Shown here piece after piece: positions 6,416-51,720 of a stretch of 64,000 nucleotides of DNA. The notes beneath the pieces were generated by a model that saw only the letters and a list, made by a program, of their open reading frames with translations, was not told the DNA's origin and ran no database searches. Position numbers and translations under genes: made by a program. Source of the DNA: Neisseria zoodegmatis. GTDB taxonomy: Bacteria; Pseudomonadota; Gammaproteobacteria; Burkholderiales; Neisseriaceae. The stretch is taken from NCBI RefSeq assembly GCF_900187305.1, contig NZ_LT906434.1:1612001-1676000 (forward strand). Reading direction: 5' to 3'. How positions within the stretch are numbered: the stretch's first letter is position 1; every line of letters starts with the position of its first letter.

Positions 6416-7996
6416 ATGAAATCAAATAGTAAATATATAAACAAGTACACGAGAATGGTTAAAGATGTTGAAAGTTTTAAGAGCCATATGAAGAACACAA
6501 TGCAAAAACGTATTACTGACTTGTTAAGTCAACTAACTGACGGTATTCACGAACGTGATCAAATTATGGCACTTTCTTTACTAGGAGCTATTGCAGGCCA
6601 CAACACATTTTTATTTGGCCCTCCCGGAACTGCTAAAAGTCTGATTTCTCGCCGTTTAGCAAGTGCATTTGAAAATCCGCATTATTTTGAATATTTAATG
6701 AACCGTTTCAGTACTCCCGAAGAAGTATTTGGACCGGTGTCTATCAAAGCTTTAAAAGAAGATCGTTACATTCGCCAAATTCAAGGTTATTTACCAACCG
6801 CTGATTTTGCGTTTTTAGATGAAATTTGGAAAGCAAGCCCTGCTATTTTGAATAATCTATTAACAATTATTAATGAACGTATATTTAAAAATGGTGATGA
6901 GCAAATCGAAGTGCCTCTAAAGGCTTTAATTGCAGCTTCCAATGAAATTCCACCTGAAAATCAAGGTTTGGAGGCTTTATATGACCGCTTTATTCTTCGC
7001 TTATTTGTACCACCCATTGAACAAGAGGAAAATTTCAACCAGCTTTTAGACAGTAAACCAAGTAATGATAAGCTTGAAATTAGCTCTAATTTGCGAATTA
7101 ACTACCACGAGCTTACTAAATGGCGCGACCAGCTTCATGAAGTCAAGTTGAATGAAGATACTCTTTTAATTATCAAATCTATCCGAAAAGAACTGACTGA
7201 ACGATTTGATGAATTGGGTGTTTATATATCAGATCGCCGTTGGCAACGTGCTGCTACACTTTTAAAAGCCGCTGCATTTTGTAATGGGCGGAGAGAGACT
7301 AATCATAGTGATGTTACTTTATTAAAATATTGTTTGTGGACAACACCTGATAATCGAGAAGCAGTGGAAAAAATTGTGATGAATTCGGTAAAATCTTGTG
7401 GATTTAATACTGATGTTGATTTAGCTGCCTTAGATAGAGAGAAAGAGAGCTTAGATAAAGAAATTAATAAAGAACTCTATTATTCCAAAGACATTTATCA
7501 AACAATAACATTACCTGATGGGCGACAATATTTTAAAGTTATTTGGGAAGATGTAGGTAATGACCCTTTGTATATTAAATGTTCATATTTAAAAACTAAT
7601 CAAGATTTTAATCTTGTCAACAGTAATGGCAATGGATACCCACATATAACTGGTAACTTTAATGGTCAAGGATCTTGTAAATTAGAATACAAAAATTACT
7701 ATCATAGAACCGCCACTTTTACTCCTAAAGTTTTGTTTCATAAAGGTGATAAGAAAGAAGATATAAACATTAGATTAATTGAATCTCTTGCCCAGTCTGT
7801 TTCAGAAATTCGTAAGCAACTTGTCGATGTGTTAAAACAGGTTGAGAAAAAACATACAGACTACCAGAAATTCCTACAAAGCCCGTTTGTCACACAATCC
7901 GATATTGATGTTGCCGTCTCAGGAATCTTAGATCAAATTGATAAACTTAATTTGCGAATTAAAGATTGTGAGCGTTTGGAATCATTATGTCGTTAA
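6416..7996 (+). CDS. ravA: RavA-type MoxR AAA+ ATPase
   Basis: The 526-residue product is a MoxR-family AAA+ ATPase with Walker A GPPGTAKS at 68-75, Walker B FLDEI at 133-137, sensor-1 region ALIAASNEIP and a C-terminal extension as in RavA. In E. coli RavA forms hexamers and works with ViaA in fumarate-reductase/Fe-S protein and stress physiology. The viaA start overlaps the ravA stop by 10 nt, so the two are translationally coupled. An AGGAAA ribosome site precedes the ATG. Codon use is distinctly AT-rich compared with recA and tex just upstream, suggesting a different origin. Confidence 0.9.
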   Translation: MKSNSKYINKYTRMVKDVESFKSHMKNTMQKRITDLLSQLTDGIHERDQIMALSLLGAIAGHNTFLFGPPGTAKSLISRRLASAFENPHYFEYLMNRFSTPEEVFGPVSIKALKEDRYIRQIQGYLPTADFAFLDEIWKASPAILNNLLTIINERIFKNGDEQIEVPLKALIAASNEIPPENQGLEALYDRFILRLFVPPIEQEENFNQLLDSKPSNDKLEISSNLRINYHELTKWRDQLHEVKLNEDTLLIIKSIRKELTERFDELGVYISDRRWQRAATLLKAAAFCNGRRETNHSDVTLLKYCLWTTPDNREAVEKIVMNSVKSCGFNTDVDLAALDREKESLDKEINKELYYSKDIYQTITLPDGRQYFKVIWEDVGNDPLYIKCSYLKTNQDFNLVNSNGNGYPHITGNFNGQGSCKLEYKNYYHRTATFTPKVLFHKGDKKEDINIRLIESLAQSVSEIRKQLVDVLKQVEKKHTDYQKFLQSPFVTQSDIDVAVSGILDQIDKLNLRIKDCERLESLCR

Positions 7997-9420
7997 ATAG
8001 CAAATTATCTGAACAAATCCGTTGGATTAAAGCCTCATTGAAAACAGATTATGCAGATCTGTTCAAACGGTATGGGTCTTTAAATGAGCAAATTCAACAA
8101 CGATTGGTTGATTGGCAACATAAAATTCGATTGAATCTATTGCAGAAAAATCCTTTTATTGTGCATGAAAACAACTTAGCTAAAAGTAAGACAGGAACTT
8201 TTGATCAAACATTGATCAATGACTACCAAAATTTCTGCCAGCAAATAGGGAGGCCGTCTGAAAAAGATTTTTGGCAGGCAGAGTTGAAGAAAAATGAAAA
8301 AGTAAAAAAAGACCAAAAAAGCTTGCTTTTGAAACTTTTTACTGATAAATGGCAGCAGCAATTAGACCACGCAAAAGCACAATGGTATTTAGAGCAGTTA
8401 AATCAACTGAGACAGGAATTTCTAACAGGAGTTAAACAGGATTTAGATCTCATTCGGCAACTTGCCCAACAATTAGAGCAATTCGGGCTTGAGGCAGGAT
8501 TATGGCTGGATAATAGTATTGGCAACCTAAGTGATCAAAATATTGAAGAAATGAAGCGCTGGTTGAATTATCTAAGTCAAGATAAGACCGCCAAACAAAT
8601 TGCAGAATTACTTGGAAAAATGCGCCAAATTGAACAGTCTGAAAAAATTGAGCAAGTAAAGCAAACTGTATATATGAATAATCCTAAAGTGGATATTAAT
8701 TCACGAGAGGAAATCATCGGATTACGCTTAAGTAAAGATTTAGAACATGTATTGCCATCCGAATTGGCTTTAATGGCAGATGAAGATACTTCAGTCTTAT
8801 TTGATTTGAAGTTTTTAGAATCTAAGTTAATGTGTTTTGAATTACAAGGTATTATTTATGAAGATGCACCTGTAGAAATCACCGTGGAGCAAACAACCAA
8901 AGATGATGAAACACTTGGCCCGATGATTTTATGTATAGATACCAGTGGTTCCATGCAGGGATTGCCTGAAAATATTGCTAAGGCGATGGCTTTATTTTTA
9001 GGTATAAAAGCAAAAAGTCAAAATCGCTCTTGTTTTATTATCAATTTTTCAACCAAAATTGAAAGTTTTGAAATTACCGATACAACGGGAATATCAAAAC
9101 TAATTGAGTTTCTACAAAAATCTTTTCATGGCGGTACAGACGCTGCTCCAGCATTAAATTATGCTTTAGAAATGATGGGGCAAGATAACTATAAAAAAGC
9201 AGATTTGCTGATGATTTCTGATTTTATTATGAGTAGTTTATCTGAAGACGTACTAGATGCAATAGCGCTTCAACGTAAAGAAGGTAATCAATTTAATTCT
9301 TTAGTCATTGGTAATACATTTATGTATGAGCGATTAAAAACTCATTTTGATCATGAGTGGATATTCAATCCACATGAACAAAAAATTCATGAACTTACAT
9401 ACTTTACACAAAACCTCTAG
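7987..9420 (+). CDS. viaA: ViaA-type VWA domain protein
   Basis: The 477-residue product has a long helical N-terminal region and a C-terminal von Willebrand A domain with a complete MIDAS start DTSGS at 318-322 (ILCIDTSGSMQG), the hallmark of ViaA, the RavA partner. The ATG lies inside the last codons of ravA. The gene shares the AT-rich composition of ravA but contains one AG-DUS at about 8251, read as GRPSEK (residues 88-93), so it has been in a DUS-bearing background long enough to carry one or was acquired with it. A hairpin terminator follows. Confidence 0.9.
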   Translation: MSLNSKLSEQIRWIKASLKTDYADLFKRYGSLNEQIQQRLVDWQHKIRLNLLQKNPFIVHENNLAKSKTGTFDQTLINDYQNFCQQIGRPSEKDFWQAELKKNEKVKKDQKSLLLKLFTDKWQQQLDHAKAQWYLEQLNQLRQEFLTGVKQDLDLIRQLAQQLEQFGLEAGLWLDNSIGNLSDQNIEEMKRWLNYLSQDKTAKQIAELLGKMRQIEQSEKIEQVKQTVYMNNPKVDINSREEIIGLRLSKDLEHVLPSELALMADEDTSVLFDLKFLESKLMCFELQGIIYEDAPVEITVEQTTKDDETLGPMILCIDTSGSMQGLPENIAKAMALFLGIKAKSQNRSCFIINFSTKIESFEITDTTGISKLIEFLQKSFHGGTDAAPALNYALEMMGQDNYKKADLLMISDFIMSSLSEDVLDAIALQRKEGNQFNSLVIGNTFMYERLKTHFDHEWIFNPHEQKIHELTYFTQNL

Positions 9421-35322: not shown

Positions 35323-35988
35323 TTAATTAGATTTAACGTTTGAGGCAGCTATTTTTATTGCTATAAAATCAGCACAATCCATAAAAATATAAAACATTAA
35401 AGATATTAAAAAAATTATAAACATAGATTTAAGTTTAAAAATTTTTTCTCGATTTTGTTTTAGAATGGGCTGATTCAAATCTAAATTTTTAATACAAAAT
35501 ATAAAAATAAACTTTAATGCCAAATAACAACTAATATAGATCAAATAAAATATTATTAAAAAAGCTAATAACCAAAATTGCCAAGCATCATAGTTGCTAA
35601 CAGCTCTAGGCCCTAATCCAGCATACCAAATTGTAAGTAATGAAATATAAATAAAATATTTATCCACACTAGAAAATATGAGATTAGATTTAGCCTGAAA
35701 AAATATGTTTCTTTTAGAATCAATATAATAATTAATATCCAATAATTCACATAATTTTGGCACATCCTCTCTTAAATACCGTATCAATATATAATCTAAT
35801 ACATAAAAAGAAATCAAAGGAGAAAGAACAAAAGCATACAAGCCATCGAGATATGGTCTCCCTCCTCTTAAAACAAGATATATCCCTGTTATAAAACAAA
35901 TCAAAAACAAACAAAACAAATAAGACAGCCAATTCCAAAAAGGTATTGAGCTATTTATATGTATGAATTTTGATTTTTCATCATCCAT
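35323..35988 (-). CDS. AT-rich orphan membrane protein
   Basis: I do not recognise this gene. From the ATG at 35988 it encodes 221 residues with about five to six hydrophobic segments (WLSYLFCLFLICFITGIYLV, LYAFVLSPLISFYVL, YFIYISLLTIWYAGLG, FWLLAFLIIFYLIYISCYLALKFIFIFC, SMFIIFLISLMFYIFM). Codon use is extremely AT-rich compared with the flanking core genes, and it separates the UPF0237 gene from acpS, genes that are otherwise compactly packed. A longer start inside acpS is possible but would overlap it. No DUS inside. Likely a horizontally acquired or fast-evolving gene. Confidence 0.6.
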   Translation of the reverse strand: MDDEKSKFIHINSSIPFWNWLSYLFCLFLICFITGIYLVLRGGRPYLDGLYAFVLSPLISFYVLDYILIRYLREDVPKLCELLDINYYIDSKRNIFFQAKSNLIFSSVDKYFIYISLLTIWYAGLGPRAVSNYDAWQFWLLAFLIIFYLIYISCYLALKFIFIFCIKNLDLNQPILKQNREKIFKLKSMFIIFLISLMFYIFMDCADFIAIKIAASNVKSN

Positions 35989-36011
35989 AATTTCTATTAT
36001 CTCTCTCTTTA

Positions 36012-46557: not shown

Positions 46558-47100
46558 TTAAAACGATGATCCCGGCTCTTGCAGAAAGGTGATTTCTTCT
46601 TCGGTGCTTTCCCGACCTAAAACGGCATTGCGGTGCGGGTAGCGGCCGAAGCGGTCGATAATCACTTTATGTTTGATTTCAAATTCAAGCGCATGGGGTG
46701 TGGTATAGCGTTCAAACCATGCCAACGCCTGTTCGTGAATCGCACGGCTTTCGCTGTGCATCAGCGGCATCAGCATAAAGTGACGTTCGGAAGACTCCAT
46801 CCCGGCAAAACCCGGCTGCTGCACAGCTTCCTGCGCCAGCGCCACCGCCATATTATCCTGCGCGAACGCCATAGGGCTGTCGCGGAACAGGTTGCGTGAA
46901 AATTGGTCGAGCACAATAATTTCCGCCAAACGACCATGCAGCGTGTCGCGCCAGCTGTAAAGCTCCGAATAAGCCGCCTGCCGCCACACATCGGCAAAGC
47001 GGCTGCGGATTTCCGCATCAAACTCATCGCTTTTGCTGAACCAAAACGGCCGGTTTTGTTCATCGAACCAAAAATCAAGTACGGTTTGGGGAGTCATCAT
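46558..47100 (-). CDS. DUF924 family protein
   Basis: The 180-residue protein has the DUF924 features: VLDFWFDEQNRPFWFSKSDEFDAEI at the start, GRLAEIIVLDQFSRNLFRDSPMAFAQD in the middle and RFGRYPHRNAVLGRESTEEEITFL near the end. It is an all-helical TPR-like fold of unknown function found widely in proteobacteria. Two Met codons are adjacent at the start. Confidence 0.88.
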   Translation of the reverse strand: MMTPQTVLDFWFDEQNRPFWFSKSDEFDAEIRSRFADVWRQAAYSELYSWRDTLHGRLAEIIVLDQFSRNLFRDSPMAFAQDNMAVALAQEAVQQPGFAGMESSERHFMLMPLMHSESRAIHEQALAWFERYTTPHALEFEIKHKVIIDRFGRYPHRNAVLGRESTEEEITFLQEPGSSF

Positions 47101-47215
47101 TCATTCCTTTTTGAAAACCGATAAAGCTCGGGTAAGGGTTTTCCGATATCACATCGGCTGAAAAAATGCGAAAAACATCAAGATGTAAGGCAAGATTAAG
47201 ATTTGCTAAATGCTT

Positions 47216-47260
47216 TTTCAGACGGCCTCATCAAGTTTAAAATGAGGCCGTCTGAAAATC
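47216..47260. terminator. Inverted DUS pair before the small acidic gene
   Basis: TTTCAGACGGCCTCAT and ATGAGGCCGTCTGAAA form a 16-bp stem with a loop of about 11 nt. Confidence 0.55.
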
Positions 47261-47290
47261 CCCCACGCCAATAAAACAAAAGGAGCCTGT

Positions 47291-47485
47291 ATGAAACCGA
47301 CCGAACAAGACAGCACATTCGACCTCACGCCTGCGGAAGAAATGGAAGCCGAAGAACGCGAACTGATTATCGAAGATTCAGTAGATGATTTGGTTACTTA
47401 TTCCGACCATCCCTTAAGCGATTGTGAAATCGAAAACAAAAGGCTGCATTTGGAAGACATCAAACCCGAGCCTGAAGACGAATAA
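47291..47485 (+). CDS. Small acidic protein of unknown function
   Basis: The 64-residue product is strongly acidic (EEMEAEERELIIEDSVDD, EDIKPEPEDE) with no membrane segment. AAAGGAG lies 8 nt upstream of the ATG, and it follows a DUS hairpin, so it looks like a real standalone gene. It ends convergent with trpS. I do not recognise the family. Confidence 0.65.
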   Translation: MKPTEQDSTFDLTPAEEMEAEERELIIEDSVDDLVTYSDHPLSDCEIENKRLHLEDIKPEPEDE

Positions 47486-47528
47486 TCCCTTCGCCAAACT
47501 CAGGTTCAACGCCTTTTCGTTTCAAATC

Positions 47529-48848
47529 TTATTTCAAAGCCCGGATACCCACGGCATCGCGCACTTGATCAAGCAGCACGCGCGCCTGTTTCCGGGCTTT
47601 TTGTGCGCCTGCCTGCAAAATATCTTCGATTTGCGCGGGGTTGGCGGTTAAGGCGCTGTAACGTTCGCGCGGTTCGGCCAATTCGGCATTGATTTTCGCG
47701 GCAAGCATTTTTTTGGCTTCGCCCCACGCCAAGCCTTCGGCCAGCATTTGCGTGAATTCGGCGGTTTCGGCAGGCGTGGCAAAGGCTTTGTAAATCTCAA
47801 ACAACGGGCTTTCGTCGGGCTGTTTCGGTTCGCCCGGTTCTTTTAAGTTGGTAATGATTTTATTCACCGATTTTTGGGTTTTCTTATCGTTTTCCCACAG
47901 CGGAATGGTGTTGCCGTAGCTCTTACTCATCTTGCGGCCGTCCAAGCCCACCAGCAATTCTACGTTTTCGTCGATTTTCACTTCGGGCAGCGTAAACACT
48001 TCTTTAAAGCGGTGGTTGAAACGGCCTGCAATATCGCGCGCCATTTCAACATGTTGGATTTGGTCGCGGCCCACCGGCACTTCTTGCGCGTTAAACATTA
48101 AAATATCGGCAGTCATCAGAATCGGGTAGCTGTACAAGCCCATCTCGATACCATCATCATTCAAATCCAAAAGATAACCATATTTTTTGAAAAAATTTCT
48201 CAATTCATCAACAGATTTATTCCTAATTTGATAAGCTCCACTATCATCAAAAGGAATCTCTACAAACTCTTTTTCAAAGTCTTCCAATATTGGAATAGTT
48301 ATTATTCCAGATGGTAAATATTCATCTATGTCAGCGAGAAAATCCCATAATAATTTGTATGAATTTGAGATTATTGAATCTGTTTGATAATTAAATAAAT
48401 TTTGAATCTCTTGTGACAATCTTAAATCAGCCCATTCATACTCTTGGTAACTTCCATTAATCCCAAACGTACGCTGAATTCTTTTTGCTAAATTTTCCTG
48501 CACCGCCGCTTTGTAGGCATGGGCGCGGTTCATCAGACCTTTGGCGGTGATGCAGGTCAGAATCCAGTTCAACTCCATGATTTCGGGAATGTCGCTCTGG
48601 CGGTAAAACGTGGTTTTTTCGGGGTCTAAACCGCAAGCCAGCCAAGTGGCGGCAACGGCTTGGGTGGATTCGTGAATCAGCTCGGGATCATGGCATTTGA
48701 TAATGCCGTGGTAATCGGCGAGAAACAGGAAAGATTCGGTATCCGGCGCATGCGAGGCTGCAATCGCAGGGCGGATAGCGCCGACGTAGTTGCCCAAATG
48801 CGGAATGCCGGTGGTGGTTACTCCGGTTAAAACACGTTTTTTATTCAT
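47529..48848 (-). CDS. trpS: Tryptophan--tRNA ligase with a large internal insertion
   Basis: TrpRS charges tRNA-Trp. The class I signatures are present: PHLGN (HIGH-like, 16-20) and GRKMSKS, with [27 protein letters not shown] between them. The chain is 439 residues against about 335 normally. The excess is a segment of roughly 117 residues (about 118-234, [12 protein letters not shown]... to ...YLLDLNDDG) placed between [10 protein letters not shown] and the GLYSYP motif, where typical sequences have only about a dozen residues. The DNA of this segment (about 48152-48499) is strikingly AT-rich whereas both flanks have host composition. The frame stays open across both joints. The ATG at 48848 ([14 protein letters not shown]) matches relatives. 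Confidence 0.93.
48152..48499 (-). other. AT-rich in-frame insertion inside trpS
   Basis: This segment encodes about 117 residues not expected in bacterial TrpRS. It starts after AYKAAVQ and ends before IEMGLYSYP. Sequence features: aromatic- and acid-rich ([68 protein letters not shown]). It lacks intein marks (no Cys/Ser first residue, no terminal His-Asn). Origin and role unknown. Confidence 0.8.
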
Positions 48849-48868
48849 TTTGTTCTCTTTAAATAAGA

Positions 48869-48903
48869 TTTCAGACGGCCTGTTCAAACAGAGGCCGTCT
48901 GAA
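48869..48903. terminator. Inverted DUS pair upstream of trpS
   Basis: TTTCAGACGGCCTG and GAGGCCGTCTGAAA across about 10 nt. The rest of the gap to clpB is AT-rich leader and promoter sequence. Confidence 0.55.
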
Positions 48904-49075
48904 ACGGCAATCATAAAAATCAAGTGGCGGATTATACATCAAACACGGTTTTCAGACGGACTTTACACACAATCCGCCGCGTTTCCTGTAGAGGCATACC
49001 AAACTTATCCACAAGCATATTTTATTAATATTCATAAATTTATAAAATATTTCAATCTGTTTGATAGAAAAGATA

Positions 49076-49103
49076 TTGACTTACCCACAGGCGAACCCAT
49101 ATA
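49076..49103 (+). promoter_or_regulatory. Heat-shock (sigma-32) promoter of clpB
   Basis: TTGACTT at 49076-49082 and CCCATATA at 49096-49103 with a 13-nt spacer match the RpoH consensus (CTTGAAA, N13-17, CCCCATNT) well. The clpB ATG is 43 nt further on. Confidence 0.7.
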
Positions 49104-49146
49104 GCTTTCATCTAAACAATACACAAACTTTAAAGAAAGAAAACAG

Positions 49147-51720
49147 ATGAGATTCGACAAACTAACCGCAAAATTCCAACAAGCGCTGGCCGATGCCCAA
49201 AGCATGGCTTTGGCTGCCGACAACAGTTATCTCGAAGCAGGCCATGTATTGAAAGCCCTGCTCGACGATAACGAAGGCGGCACTGCCGCTCTGCTCTCGC
49301 ACGCCGGTGTAAACGTGCCGCAAGTAAAACAACAACTTACCCAAGCCTTAAACGGCCTGCCCAAAGTATCCGGCACCGGCGGCGAAATCCTGCCCAGCCG
49401 CGAATTACAGGCCGTCTTAAACCTGATGGACAAAGCCGCCATGAAACGCGGCGATGCCTATATCGCCAGCGAACTGTTCCCACTGGCATTGGTACAGCAA
49501 AACGACAGCACCGGTAAAATTCTGAAAAATGCCGGAGCCACCGAACAAAACATCAACGCCGCCATTGACGCGGTACGAGGAGGAGCCTCTGTGGATAACC
49601 CCAACGCTGAAGACCAACGCGAAGCCCTGAAAAAATATACCACCGACTTAACCCAGCGCGCCCGCGAAGGCAAACTCGACCCCGTGATCGGCCGCGACGA
49701 CGAAATCCGCCGCGCCATCCAAGTATTGCAACGCCGCACCAAAAACAACCCGGTGTTAATCGGCGAGCCCGGCGTGGGTAAAACCGCCATTGTTGAAGGC
49801 TTGGCTCAACGCATCGTCGATGGCGAAGTGCCCGATTCCCTGCGTAACAAACGCCTGCTGGTGCTTGATTTGGCCGCATTGATTGCCGGTGCCAAATACC
49901 GCGGCGAGTTTGAAGAACGCTTAAAGGCCGTCTTAAACGATTTGGCTAAAGACGACGGCAACACGCTGATTTTCATTGATGAAATCCATACTTTGGTTGG
50001 CGCGGGCAAAACCGACGGCGCGATGGACGCGGGTAATATGCTCAAACCCGCCCTTGCCCGCGGCGAACTGCACTGTATCGGTGCCACTACTTTGGACGAA
50101 TACCGCCAATACATCGAAAAAGATGCCGCGCTGGAACGCCGCTTCCAAAAAGTATTGGTAGGCGAACCGAGCGTGGAAGACACCATCGCCATTCTGCGCG
50201 GCTTGCAGGAGCGTTACGAAATCCACCACGGCATCGACATCACCGACCCGGCCATTGTCGCTGCTGCGGAATTGAGCAACCGCTATATCACCGACCGTTT
50301 TCTGCCCGATAAGGCCATTGATTTGATCGACGAAGCCGCCAGCCGCATCAAAATGGAATTGGATTCCAAACCTGAGCAGATGGACAAACTCGACCGCCGC
50401 ATCATCCAACTCAAAATGGAAAAAATGCACGTTGAGAAAGAAAGCGACGATGCCAGCAAAAAACGCCTCGATTTAATCGACGAAGAAATCGCCGGCCTGC
50501 AAAAAGAATACGCCGATTTGGACGAAATCTGGAAAGCCGAAAAAGCCGCTTCCGCCGGCACCGCCGACATCAAAAAACAAATCGACGACATCAAAGTCAA
50601 AATCGAGCAGGCCAAACGCCAAGGCGACTTCGCCCGCGCATCCGAACTGGAATACGGCGAACTGCCCAAACTCAGCCAACAGCTGCAAGCGCTGGAAAAC
50701 AATCCGCAAGAGCAGCAGGCCAACAAACTCTTCCGCACCAAAGTGGGCGCGGACGAAGTGGCCGAAATCGTATCGCGCATGACCGGCATTCCGGTAAGCA
50801 AAATGATGGAAGGCGAACGCGACAAACTCTTGAAAATGGAAGAAGTATTGCACAACCGCGTGGTGGGACAAGACGAAGCCGTGCGCGCCGTTTCCAACGC
50901 CATCCGCCGCTCCCGCTCCGGCTTGGCCGACCCCAACAAACCATACGGCAGCTTCCTCTTCTTAGGCCCGACCGGTGTCGGCAAAACCGAACTGTGCAAA
51001 GCCTTGGCGAGCTTCCTGTTTGACAGCGAAGACCATTTAATCCGCATCGATATGTCGGAATACATGGAAAAACACGCCGTTGCCCGCTTAATCGGCGCGC
51101 CTCCCGGCTATGTCGGCTACGAAGAAGGCGGCTACCTAACCGAACAAGTCCGCCGCAAACCTTACAGCGTGATCCTGCTCGACGAAGTGGAAAAAGCCCA
51201 CCCCGACGTGTTCAACATCCTGCTGCAAGTGTTGGACGACGGCCGCTTGACCGACGGTCAAGGCCGCACGGTGGACTTTAAAAACACCGTGATCGTGATG
51301 ACTTCCAACATCGGCAGCCACCACATCCAGCAAATGGGCACATCGGATTACGAAGCCGTGAAAGAAGTGGTCATGGAAGACGTGAAAGAACACTTCCGCC
51401 CTGAAATGATTAACCGTATCGACGAAGTGGTCGTGTTCCACGGCTTGGATCAGGCCAATATCCGCAGCATCGCCAAAATCCAGCTCAAAGGCTTGGAAAA
51501 ACGCCTTGCCGCACAGAACCTGCATCTCAAAGTCGACGATGCCGCACTGGATCTAATCGCCAAAGCAGGCTTCGACCCCGTGTACGGCGCACGCCCGCTC
51601 AAACGCGCCATCCAAGCGGAAATCGAAAACCCGCTGGCCTTGGCTCTGCTCGAAGGCAAATATAAGCCTGAAAGCGTGATTCATGTGAAAGCGGATGGGG
51701 ATAAGCTGGCGTTTGATTGA
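49147..51720 (+). CDS. clpB: ATP-dependent chaperone ClpB
   Basis: ClpB is the hexameric disaggregase working with DnaK. The 857-residue protein has the N-terminal Clp repeat domain (1-145), the first AAA+ domain with GEPGVGKT at 206-213, the coiled-coil middle domain (about 400-525), and the second AAA+ domain with GPTGVGKT at about 607-614 and sensor regions. Length is standard. A heat-shock-type promoter precedes it and a long perfect DUS hairpin terminator follows. Confidence 0.98.

What the first reader, a model, noticed from the sequence alone, without database searches (positions are those of the whole stretch)
47529..48848. trpS carries an in-frame AT-rich insertion of about 117 residues
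Seen in sequence: the two halves of TrpRS are normal but separated by about 117 extra residues (about 118-234, DNA about 48152-48499) whose base composition is far more AT-rich than either flank, and the reading frame stays open. Established: bacterial TrpRS is about 330-340 residues with a short loop here. Inference: a foreign coding fragment was captured into an essential tRNA synthetase and kept functional, giving a new domain, or it marks selection by something that targets TrpRS (for example an indolmycin-like inhibitor, a toxin or a phage factor). It has no intein marks.
Basis: partly seen in the sequence, partly recalled or inferred. Interest (0 to 1): 0.82.

Follow-up and report, generated by a model that had tools for sequence, protein, structure and literature searches.

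The report
Foreign segment inside an essential synthetase
In one Neisseria genome the only copy of an essential enzyme, which loads tryptophan onto its tRNA, carries about a hundred extra amino acids of unidentified, foreign-looking origin in place of a short loop; this looks like a recent accidental capture that the enzyme tolerates, and no role for it has been shown.

Summary
trpS (47529-48848, minus strand, 439 aa) is the only TrpRS match in a one-contig 2.55 Mb Neisseria genome. In 33 of 35 other genus genomes searched the gene has a short loop after the helix ending AAVQxN; of the other two, one gene is disrupted and one not found. Here 342 nt (48150-48491; 28.7% GC, GC3 19%) stand where the two nearest relatives have 33 nt. 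So it is a replacement (11 residues out, 114 in), not a clean insertion. The frame is a coding frame, and the 95 positions invariant among 39 other TrpRS are kept. Searches found no significant homolog of the segment. In 464 kb of this genome no other long ORF has a comparable internal GC dip. Best explanation: a piece of an unidentified AT-rich gene entered by illegitimate recombination, probably during natural transformation, in a loop near the tryptophan pocket, and is most likely a tolerated passenger. A functional domain, or selection by a TrpRS-directed agent, is neither excluded nor supported; structure prediction of the segment was uninformative. Intein, duplication and second trpS were tested and rejected; an intron is very unlikely. 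Known kind of event (short segment replacement), striking in size and place.

The parts
47529..48848 (-). trpS, tryptophan--tRNA ligase, 439 aa including the foreign-looking segment; only TrpRS match in the genome
   Evidence: PF00579 and TIGR00233 above cut-off; one match in the own genome
48492..48848 (-). N-terminal part of TrpRS, residues 1-119, with the HIGH-type motif PHLGN
   Evidence: 96.9% and 96.1% DNA identity to L003 and L002; conserved positions kept
48150..48491 (-). AT-rich coding segment, residues 120-233 (114 codons), in place of the 33-nt (11-residue) loop of relatives
   Evidence: no significant homolog found
47532..48149 (-). C-terminal part of TrpRS, residues 234-439, with [17 protein letters not shown] (tryptophan-pocket helix, role recalled) and KMSKS
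   Evidence: 98.2% and 94.5% DNA identity to L003 and L002; conserved positions kept
48870..48903 (.). Inverted pair of AGGCCGTCTGAA (DNA uptake sequence, name recalled) upstream of trpS
   Evidence: exact matches at 48881 (-) and 48892 (+); 40 + 33 copies in the window
47217..47256 (.). Inverted pair of AGGCCGTCTGAA downstream of trpS, beyond a small ORF
   Evidence: exact matches at 47228 (-) and 47245 (+)

Best explanation
A fragment of an unidentified AT-rich protein-coding gene, in its own reading frame, replaced a short loop of TrpRS (11 residues out, 114 in). It entered by illegitimate recombination, most likely from DNA taken up by natural transformation, after this lineage split from its nearest sequenced relatives. 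The loop lies just before the helix that lines the tryptophan pocket and tolerates the bulge, so the sole TrpRS of the cell still works. The segment is most likely a passenger. Shown: replacement, coding frame, deviant composition, absence from the relatives searched, kept synthetase motifs, single copy. Inferred: route of entry, donor type, that the enzyme works, absence of function.
For: Ungapped matches to relatives up to gene nt 357 and from nt 700, with 342 nt against 33 nt between. The locus is collinear with L003: neighbouring stretches at 92.7-92.8% identity, one stretch that includes the 3' part of trpS at 95.8%; so only the segment is new. Short loop in 33 of 35 other genus genomes; one has a disrupted gene (G015), one no match (G002). 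Segment found in 1 of 46 genus genomes, its own. Coding signature and GC3 of 19%. Largest GC dip among 281 long ORFs. Only TrpRS match in a one-contig genome rated 100% complete, with 95 of 95 invariant and 53 of 53 nearly invariant positions kept. 73 copies of one 12-mer uptake-like sequence in 64 kb. Segments of 20-500 bp, put down to illegitimate recombination and some in frame, are described for E. coli, S. aureus and S. pyogenes (PMC2884548, abstract parts and passages).
Against: No donor was found, so foreign origin rests on composition and absence from relatives. Microhomology at the junctions cannot be tested without the donor. The composition (pI 4.28, net charge -10, 16% aromatic) does not look like simple filler, which leaves room for function. 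In the full model the helix leading into the junction (101-120) is only at 59-69 pLDDT, so effects on the neighbouring core are not excluded. Reads and other strains were not available.
Confidence: 0.72

Rival explanations
1. The segment is a functional accessory domain: an acidic soluble domain kept because it changes what TrpRS binds or protects it from an inhibitor, toxin or phage factor.
For: Open coding frame; acidic, aromatic-rich composition, as in many immunity-type proteins (recalled generality); position near the tryptophan pocket (register, residue roles recalled).
Against: No significant family, sequence or fold match; poor single-sequence model; known from one genome, so selection cannot be measured. 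Weak matches are at chance level: Skp1 E 0.03, a DUF7716 protein E 0.07-0.10, Drt3a E 0.046.
Confidence: 0.15
2. Homologous transfer of a trpS that already carried the segment, from another species, so that the capture is older and happened elsewhere.
For: Three synonymous differences within 13 nt after the right junction (gene nt 738, 744, 750) against both nearest relatives.
Against: Flanks otherwise 97-98% identical to L003, with no difference over nt 799-1121; no other trpS with the segment among genomes searched.
Confidence: 0.08
3. Assembly or strain-handling artefact: a chimera in the deposited sequence.
For: Known from one genome; no second strain and no reads could be checked.
Against: One-contig genome; frame kept across both junctions; 33 nt missing at the site; an accidental join would rarely give an open, coding-like AT-rich frame.
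Confidence: 0.04
4. Intein, self-splicing intron or programmed bypass element removed after transcription or translation.
For: Middle of an essential enzyme with frame kept.
Against: Native loop residues are missing, so precise removal would not restore the relatives' protein; no Cys or His in the segment; no intein model hit; no Rfam match over 47000-49300 at gathering scores.
Confidence: 0.01

Closest known systems
Bacterial TrpRS (TIGR00233; solved structure 5tev/5tew, which I recall as Neisseria gonorrhoeae)
   Same: Both catalytic halves, motifs and conserved positions; 5tev aligns to residues 1-120 and 231-439
   Different: 5tev has only seven residues between the two aligned parts (129-135) where this protein has 110
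Microdiversity variable segments of 20-500 bp (PMC2884548; abstract parts and passages seen)
   Same: 342-nt segment replacement with sharp borders, frame kept, no mobile-element signature; illegitimate recombination proposed as cause
   Different: Other species. In the passages seen the in-frame examples are surface or membrane protein genes; but one passage cites a study finding such regions more numerous in essential proteins, so an essential host gene is not unheard of
Homology-facilitated or double illegitimate recombination in natural transformation (titles, reference entries, one abstract start and one passage seen)
   Same: Foreign segment in, resident segment out, in a genus with dense uptake sequences
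   Different: Donor and microhomologies not identified
Insertion domains of aminoacyl-tRNA synthetases (editing and other domains; recalled)
   Same: Extra stretch inside the catalytic fold
   Different: Those are old and shared across lineages (recalled); this one is known from a single genome and has no relatives found

Membership tests
Tryptophan--tRNA ligase (class I) | Score above the curated cut-off of a TrpRS model | tested here: met
   TIGR00233 290.4 bits against 176.75, PF00579 173.7 against 21.1. The narrower models NF008923 (540.9 of 597) and NF009207 (446.4 of 479) fall below their cut-offs; whether because of the segment was not tested
Tryptophan--tRNA ligase (class I) | HIGH- and KMSKS-type motifs and family-invariant positions | tested here: met
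   PHLGN and KMSKS present; 95 of 95 columns invariant in 39 other rows and 53 of 53 nearly invariant ones kept
Tryptophan--tRNA ligase (class I) | Catalytic activity | not testable with these tools
   Inferred from being the only copy found
Short segment replacement by illegitimate recombination | Resident DNA replaced by unrelated DNA with intact flanks | tested here: met
   33 nt out, 342 nt in, flanks 94-98% identical to the two nearest relatives
Short segment replacement by illegitimate recombination | No mobile-element signature | tested here: met
   No significant Pfam, NCBIfam, PHROG, PADLOC or Rfam match to the segment; no other copy in the genome, only short chance matches
Short segment replacement by illegitimate recombination | Microhomology with the donor at a junction | not testable with these tools
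   Donor not found
Intein | Cys/Ser at the first position, terminal His-Asn and Cys/Ser/Thr after it (recalled) | tested here: not met
   No Cys or His in the segment; it starts with Leu and is followed by Ile
Polymorphic-toxin immunity protein | Match to a known immunity family | tested here: not met
   No significant match in Pfam, NCBIfam, PHROGs or PADLOC; only a chance-level resemblance to an Rhs-associated DUF7716 protein, E 0.07-0.10. Gene context of the donor could not be tested

The most novel reading that the evidence does not exclude
The segment is most of a small acidic domain of an unknown family (for example an immunity or inhibitor-binding protein) that became part of an essential synthetase, giving this lineage a TrpRS with a new regulatory or protective function.
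Probability: 0.13. Interest if true: 0.75.

Novelty: new variant of a known kind. Interest (0 to 1): 0.42.

Why it matters
It is a natural, apparently recent gain of about 100 foreign-looking residues close to the substrate pocket of an essential enzyme with no second copy found. That makes it a clean test case for how transformation-competent bacteria gain new protein parts and how far a core translation enzyme tolerates them. If the segment had a function, it would show the first step of the birth of a synthetase accessory domain.

Tried and rejected
Donor search. The segment was sought in the own genome as protein (within) and DNA (itself plus ten short chance matches, best E 0.066), in 46 genus and 83 family genomes, 369 class genomes, 398 phylum genomes, 10 genomes of one other family, genome contigs and viral contigs by exact short peptide patterns, which reach close relatives only (also two of the six patterns), phage and plasmid records as protein and DNA (best E 0.3) and E. 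coli genomes as DNA. Nothing significant. Weak hits looked at and rejected: two ABC-transporter ATPases (E 0.001 and 0.0035, sharing a WDF-type stretch; the second came up again as the 1 of 10), an unrelated protein next to a phospholipase-like gene (E 0.003; named by eye), a long repetitive protein (E 0.016), a helicase (E 0.11), an Rhs-associated DUF7716 protein (E 0.07-0.10), Skp1 in Pfam (E 0.03, 14.6 bits against a cut-off of 22.3), one PHROG (E 0.15) and Drt3a in the PDB (E 0.046; the Drt3a stretch itself found no plasmid match). Whole genomes outside the window's own phylum were not searched, only the contig, phage and plasmid collections, so an AT-rich donor elsewhere may have been missed.

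Structure. The segment alone gave pLDDT 53.5 for the best of five models (three were at 34-36) and pTM 0.51, mostly helical; Foldseek against the PDB gave 53 matches at E up to 10, none below 2.1, meaningless at that confidence. In the full model with 40 sequences 125-217 and 221-238 are under 50.

A second trpS, a copy within the genome, an intein and a family-wide feature were tested and rejected; an Rfam scan at gathering scores gave nothing. In the class sample (341 of 369 genomes with a match) I took the 82 listed single-piece matches that span nearly all of TrpRS: they have at most 54 nt more than the query. Partial matches and rows beyond the listing were left out; the own genome is split in two by the segment.

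Full report
What is there. On the minus strand, 47529-48848 encodes a 439-residue tryptophanyl-tRNA synthetase. It scores above the curated cut-offs of PF00579 and TIGR00233. The genome, one contig of 2,552,522 bases rated 100% complete, has no other match to it at E up to 0.001. The genus is Neisseria, judged from the named relatives; the species was not identified.

Exact anatomy. Against the two nearest relatives (L003 from G018, L002 from G017) the gene aligns without gaps from nt 1 to 357 and again from nt 700. Identities are 96.9% and 98.2% for L003, 96.1% and 94.5% for L002. Between them lie 342 nt here and 33 nt in the relatives, encoding LDKGQEDQDHQ. So residues 120-233 (window 48150-48491) stand in place of an 11-residue loop. 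The frame is kept because 342 and 33 are both multiples of three. The ends resemble the loop (ENLAK against ENLDK; DDGIEMG against DHGIEMG in L029), so each border is uncertain by a few codons.

It is foreign-looking and coding. GC is 28.7% and GC3 19%, against GC3 of 62-63% on either side; GC falls from codon position 1 to 3 as in AT-rich genes. Each of the other five frames has several stops, and 9 of 200,000 simulated sequences modelled on its dinucleotides left this frame open. In the window plus 20 stretches of 20 kb from the same genome (464 kb, about 18%), 281 mechanically listed ORFs of at least 250 codons were scored for an internal GC dip: trpS scores 0.226, the next 0.114. So, in the part sampled, this genome has no second case of this strength.

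It is confined to this genome as far as searched. Of 35 other genus genomes searched with the whole protein, 29 were read at the loop and all 29 have 11 residues there. Four more (G006, G019, G023, G030) show gaps of 21 nt or less between the two matching halves. One (G015) has a disrupted gene and one (G002) no match. With the segment as query, 1 of 46 genus genomes matches at E up to 0.01, the own one. In the family 8 of 83 match at E up to 1, the own one and seven chance-level hits. In the class 3 of 369 match at E up to 0.01, the own one and two ABC ATPases. In the phylum 2 of 398 match, the own one and one chance hit. These are one genome per species; other strains could not be seen. Insertions of this size are not seen elsewhere in the class sample: 82 listed near-full-length, single-piece TrpRS matches carry at most 54 extra nt, while this gene carries 309 more than its relatives.

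The locus is otherwise inherited. Neighbouring stretches are collinear with L003 at 92.7-92.8% identity, and a stretch that includes the 3' part of trpS at 95.8%, so this is a local event in the resident gene. Three synonymous differences within 13 nt after the right junction, against both relatives, may mark a recombination tract or be chance; no difference from L003 occurs over nt 799-1121.

Does the enzyme still work? In an alignment with 39 other TrpRS (39 of the 80 loci), the 95 columns invariant in those 39 and the 53 nearly invariant ones all keep the residue here, and 103 residues of this protein stand where at most three others have any. PHLGN and KMSKS are intact. In the full AlphaFold2 model 271 of 439 residues reach pLDDT 70 or more, but 125-217 and 221-238 are below 50, the helix leading into the junction (101-120) is at 59-69 and short stretches at 300-303 and 307-311 are also below 50. 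So the model shows a good core and says nothing about the segment or how the core accommodates it. The segment ends just before [17 protein letters not shown]. By the register (1i6k residue 116 at query 232; alignment not printed, no gap assumed) Y241, M245 and D248 would correspond to Y125, M129 and D132 of the Geobacillus enzyme, which I recall as tryptophan-binding; a paper search for these residues found nothing. That the enzyme works is inferred from its being the only copy found.

How it got there. The 12-mer AGGCCGTCTGAA occurs 40 and 33 times on the two strands of 64 kb, with inverted pairs on both sides of the locus; I recall it as a Neisseria DNA uptake sequence, which fits a naturally transformable host. 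Replacement of a short resident stretch by unrelated DNA fits homology-facilitated or double illegitimate recombination, of which I saw titles, reference entries, one abstract start (PMC3240628) and one passage (PMC13344027). PMC2884548 (abstract parts and passages) reports for E. coli, S. aureus and S. pyogenes that segments of 20-500 bp make up most diversity at species level, that these loci are mostly segment replacements, recombination hot spots or diverged homeologous DNA with few simple insertions, that illegitimate recombination is a likely cause and that some lie in frame in genes. It also cites work finding such regions more numerous in essential proteins. The present case fits that kind.

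What it might do. No significant Pfam, NCBIfam, PHROG, PADLOC or PDB sequence match was found. The segment has no Met, His or Cys, pI 4.28 and net charge -10. The lack of Met suggests an internal piece of a larger gene, or a gene that lost its start. The single-sequence fold is poor (pLDDT 53.5) and finds no fold neighbour. A functional domain therefore stays possible but unsupported.

Literature. Three searches for a TrpRS or synthetase insertion of this type (11, 1 and 1 papers) listed no paper whose title or abstract start describes one; most papers of subscription journals are missing from the library.

Verdict. A real, sharply bounded and probably recent replacement of a TrpRS loop by a foreign-looking coding fragment; most likely a tolerated passenger. 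A known kind of event, striking for its size and its place in an essential enzyme.

Noticed in passing
window 35323-36000 (-): Very AT-rich (24% GC) probable membrane protein of about 225 residues without a Pfam match, between genes that look by eye like acpS and an ACT-domain protein: another small foreign-looking piece.
   Followed up: partly
window 6416-9420 (+): AT-rich pair (34% GC) of a MoxR-type AAA ATPase (bpMoxR, PF20030) and a VWA-domain protein, between an upstream gene of 59% GC and a downstream one of 45%.
   Followed up: partly
L034 1471-1803 and L035 1471-1824: Proteins next to Rhs-type modules (by eye) in two other genomes of the family; the one in L034 is DUF7716. Both share a WDF...DEYLP stretch with the trpS segment, at chance level.
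   Followed up: partly
G015 contig 1, about 1315926-1316931: The trpS of another genome of the genus (85% complete) is split over several frames with a TGA inside; perhaps sequencing errors.
   Followed up: no
L036 48-3204: Two-gene unit in another genome of the genus that looks like a Hachiman-type defence pair (helicase by Pfam; the pair named from memory).
   Followed up: no
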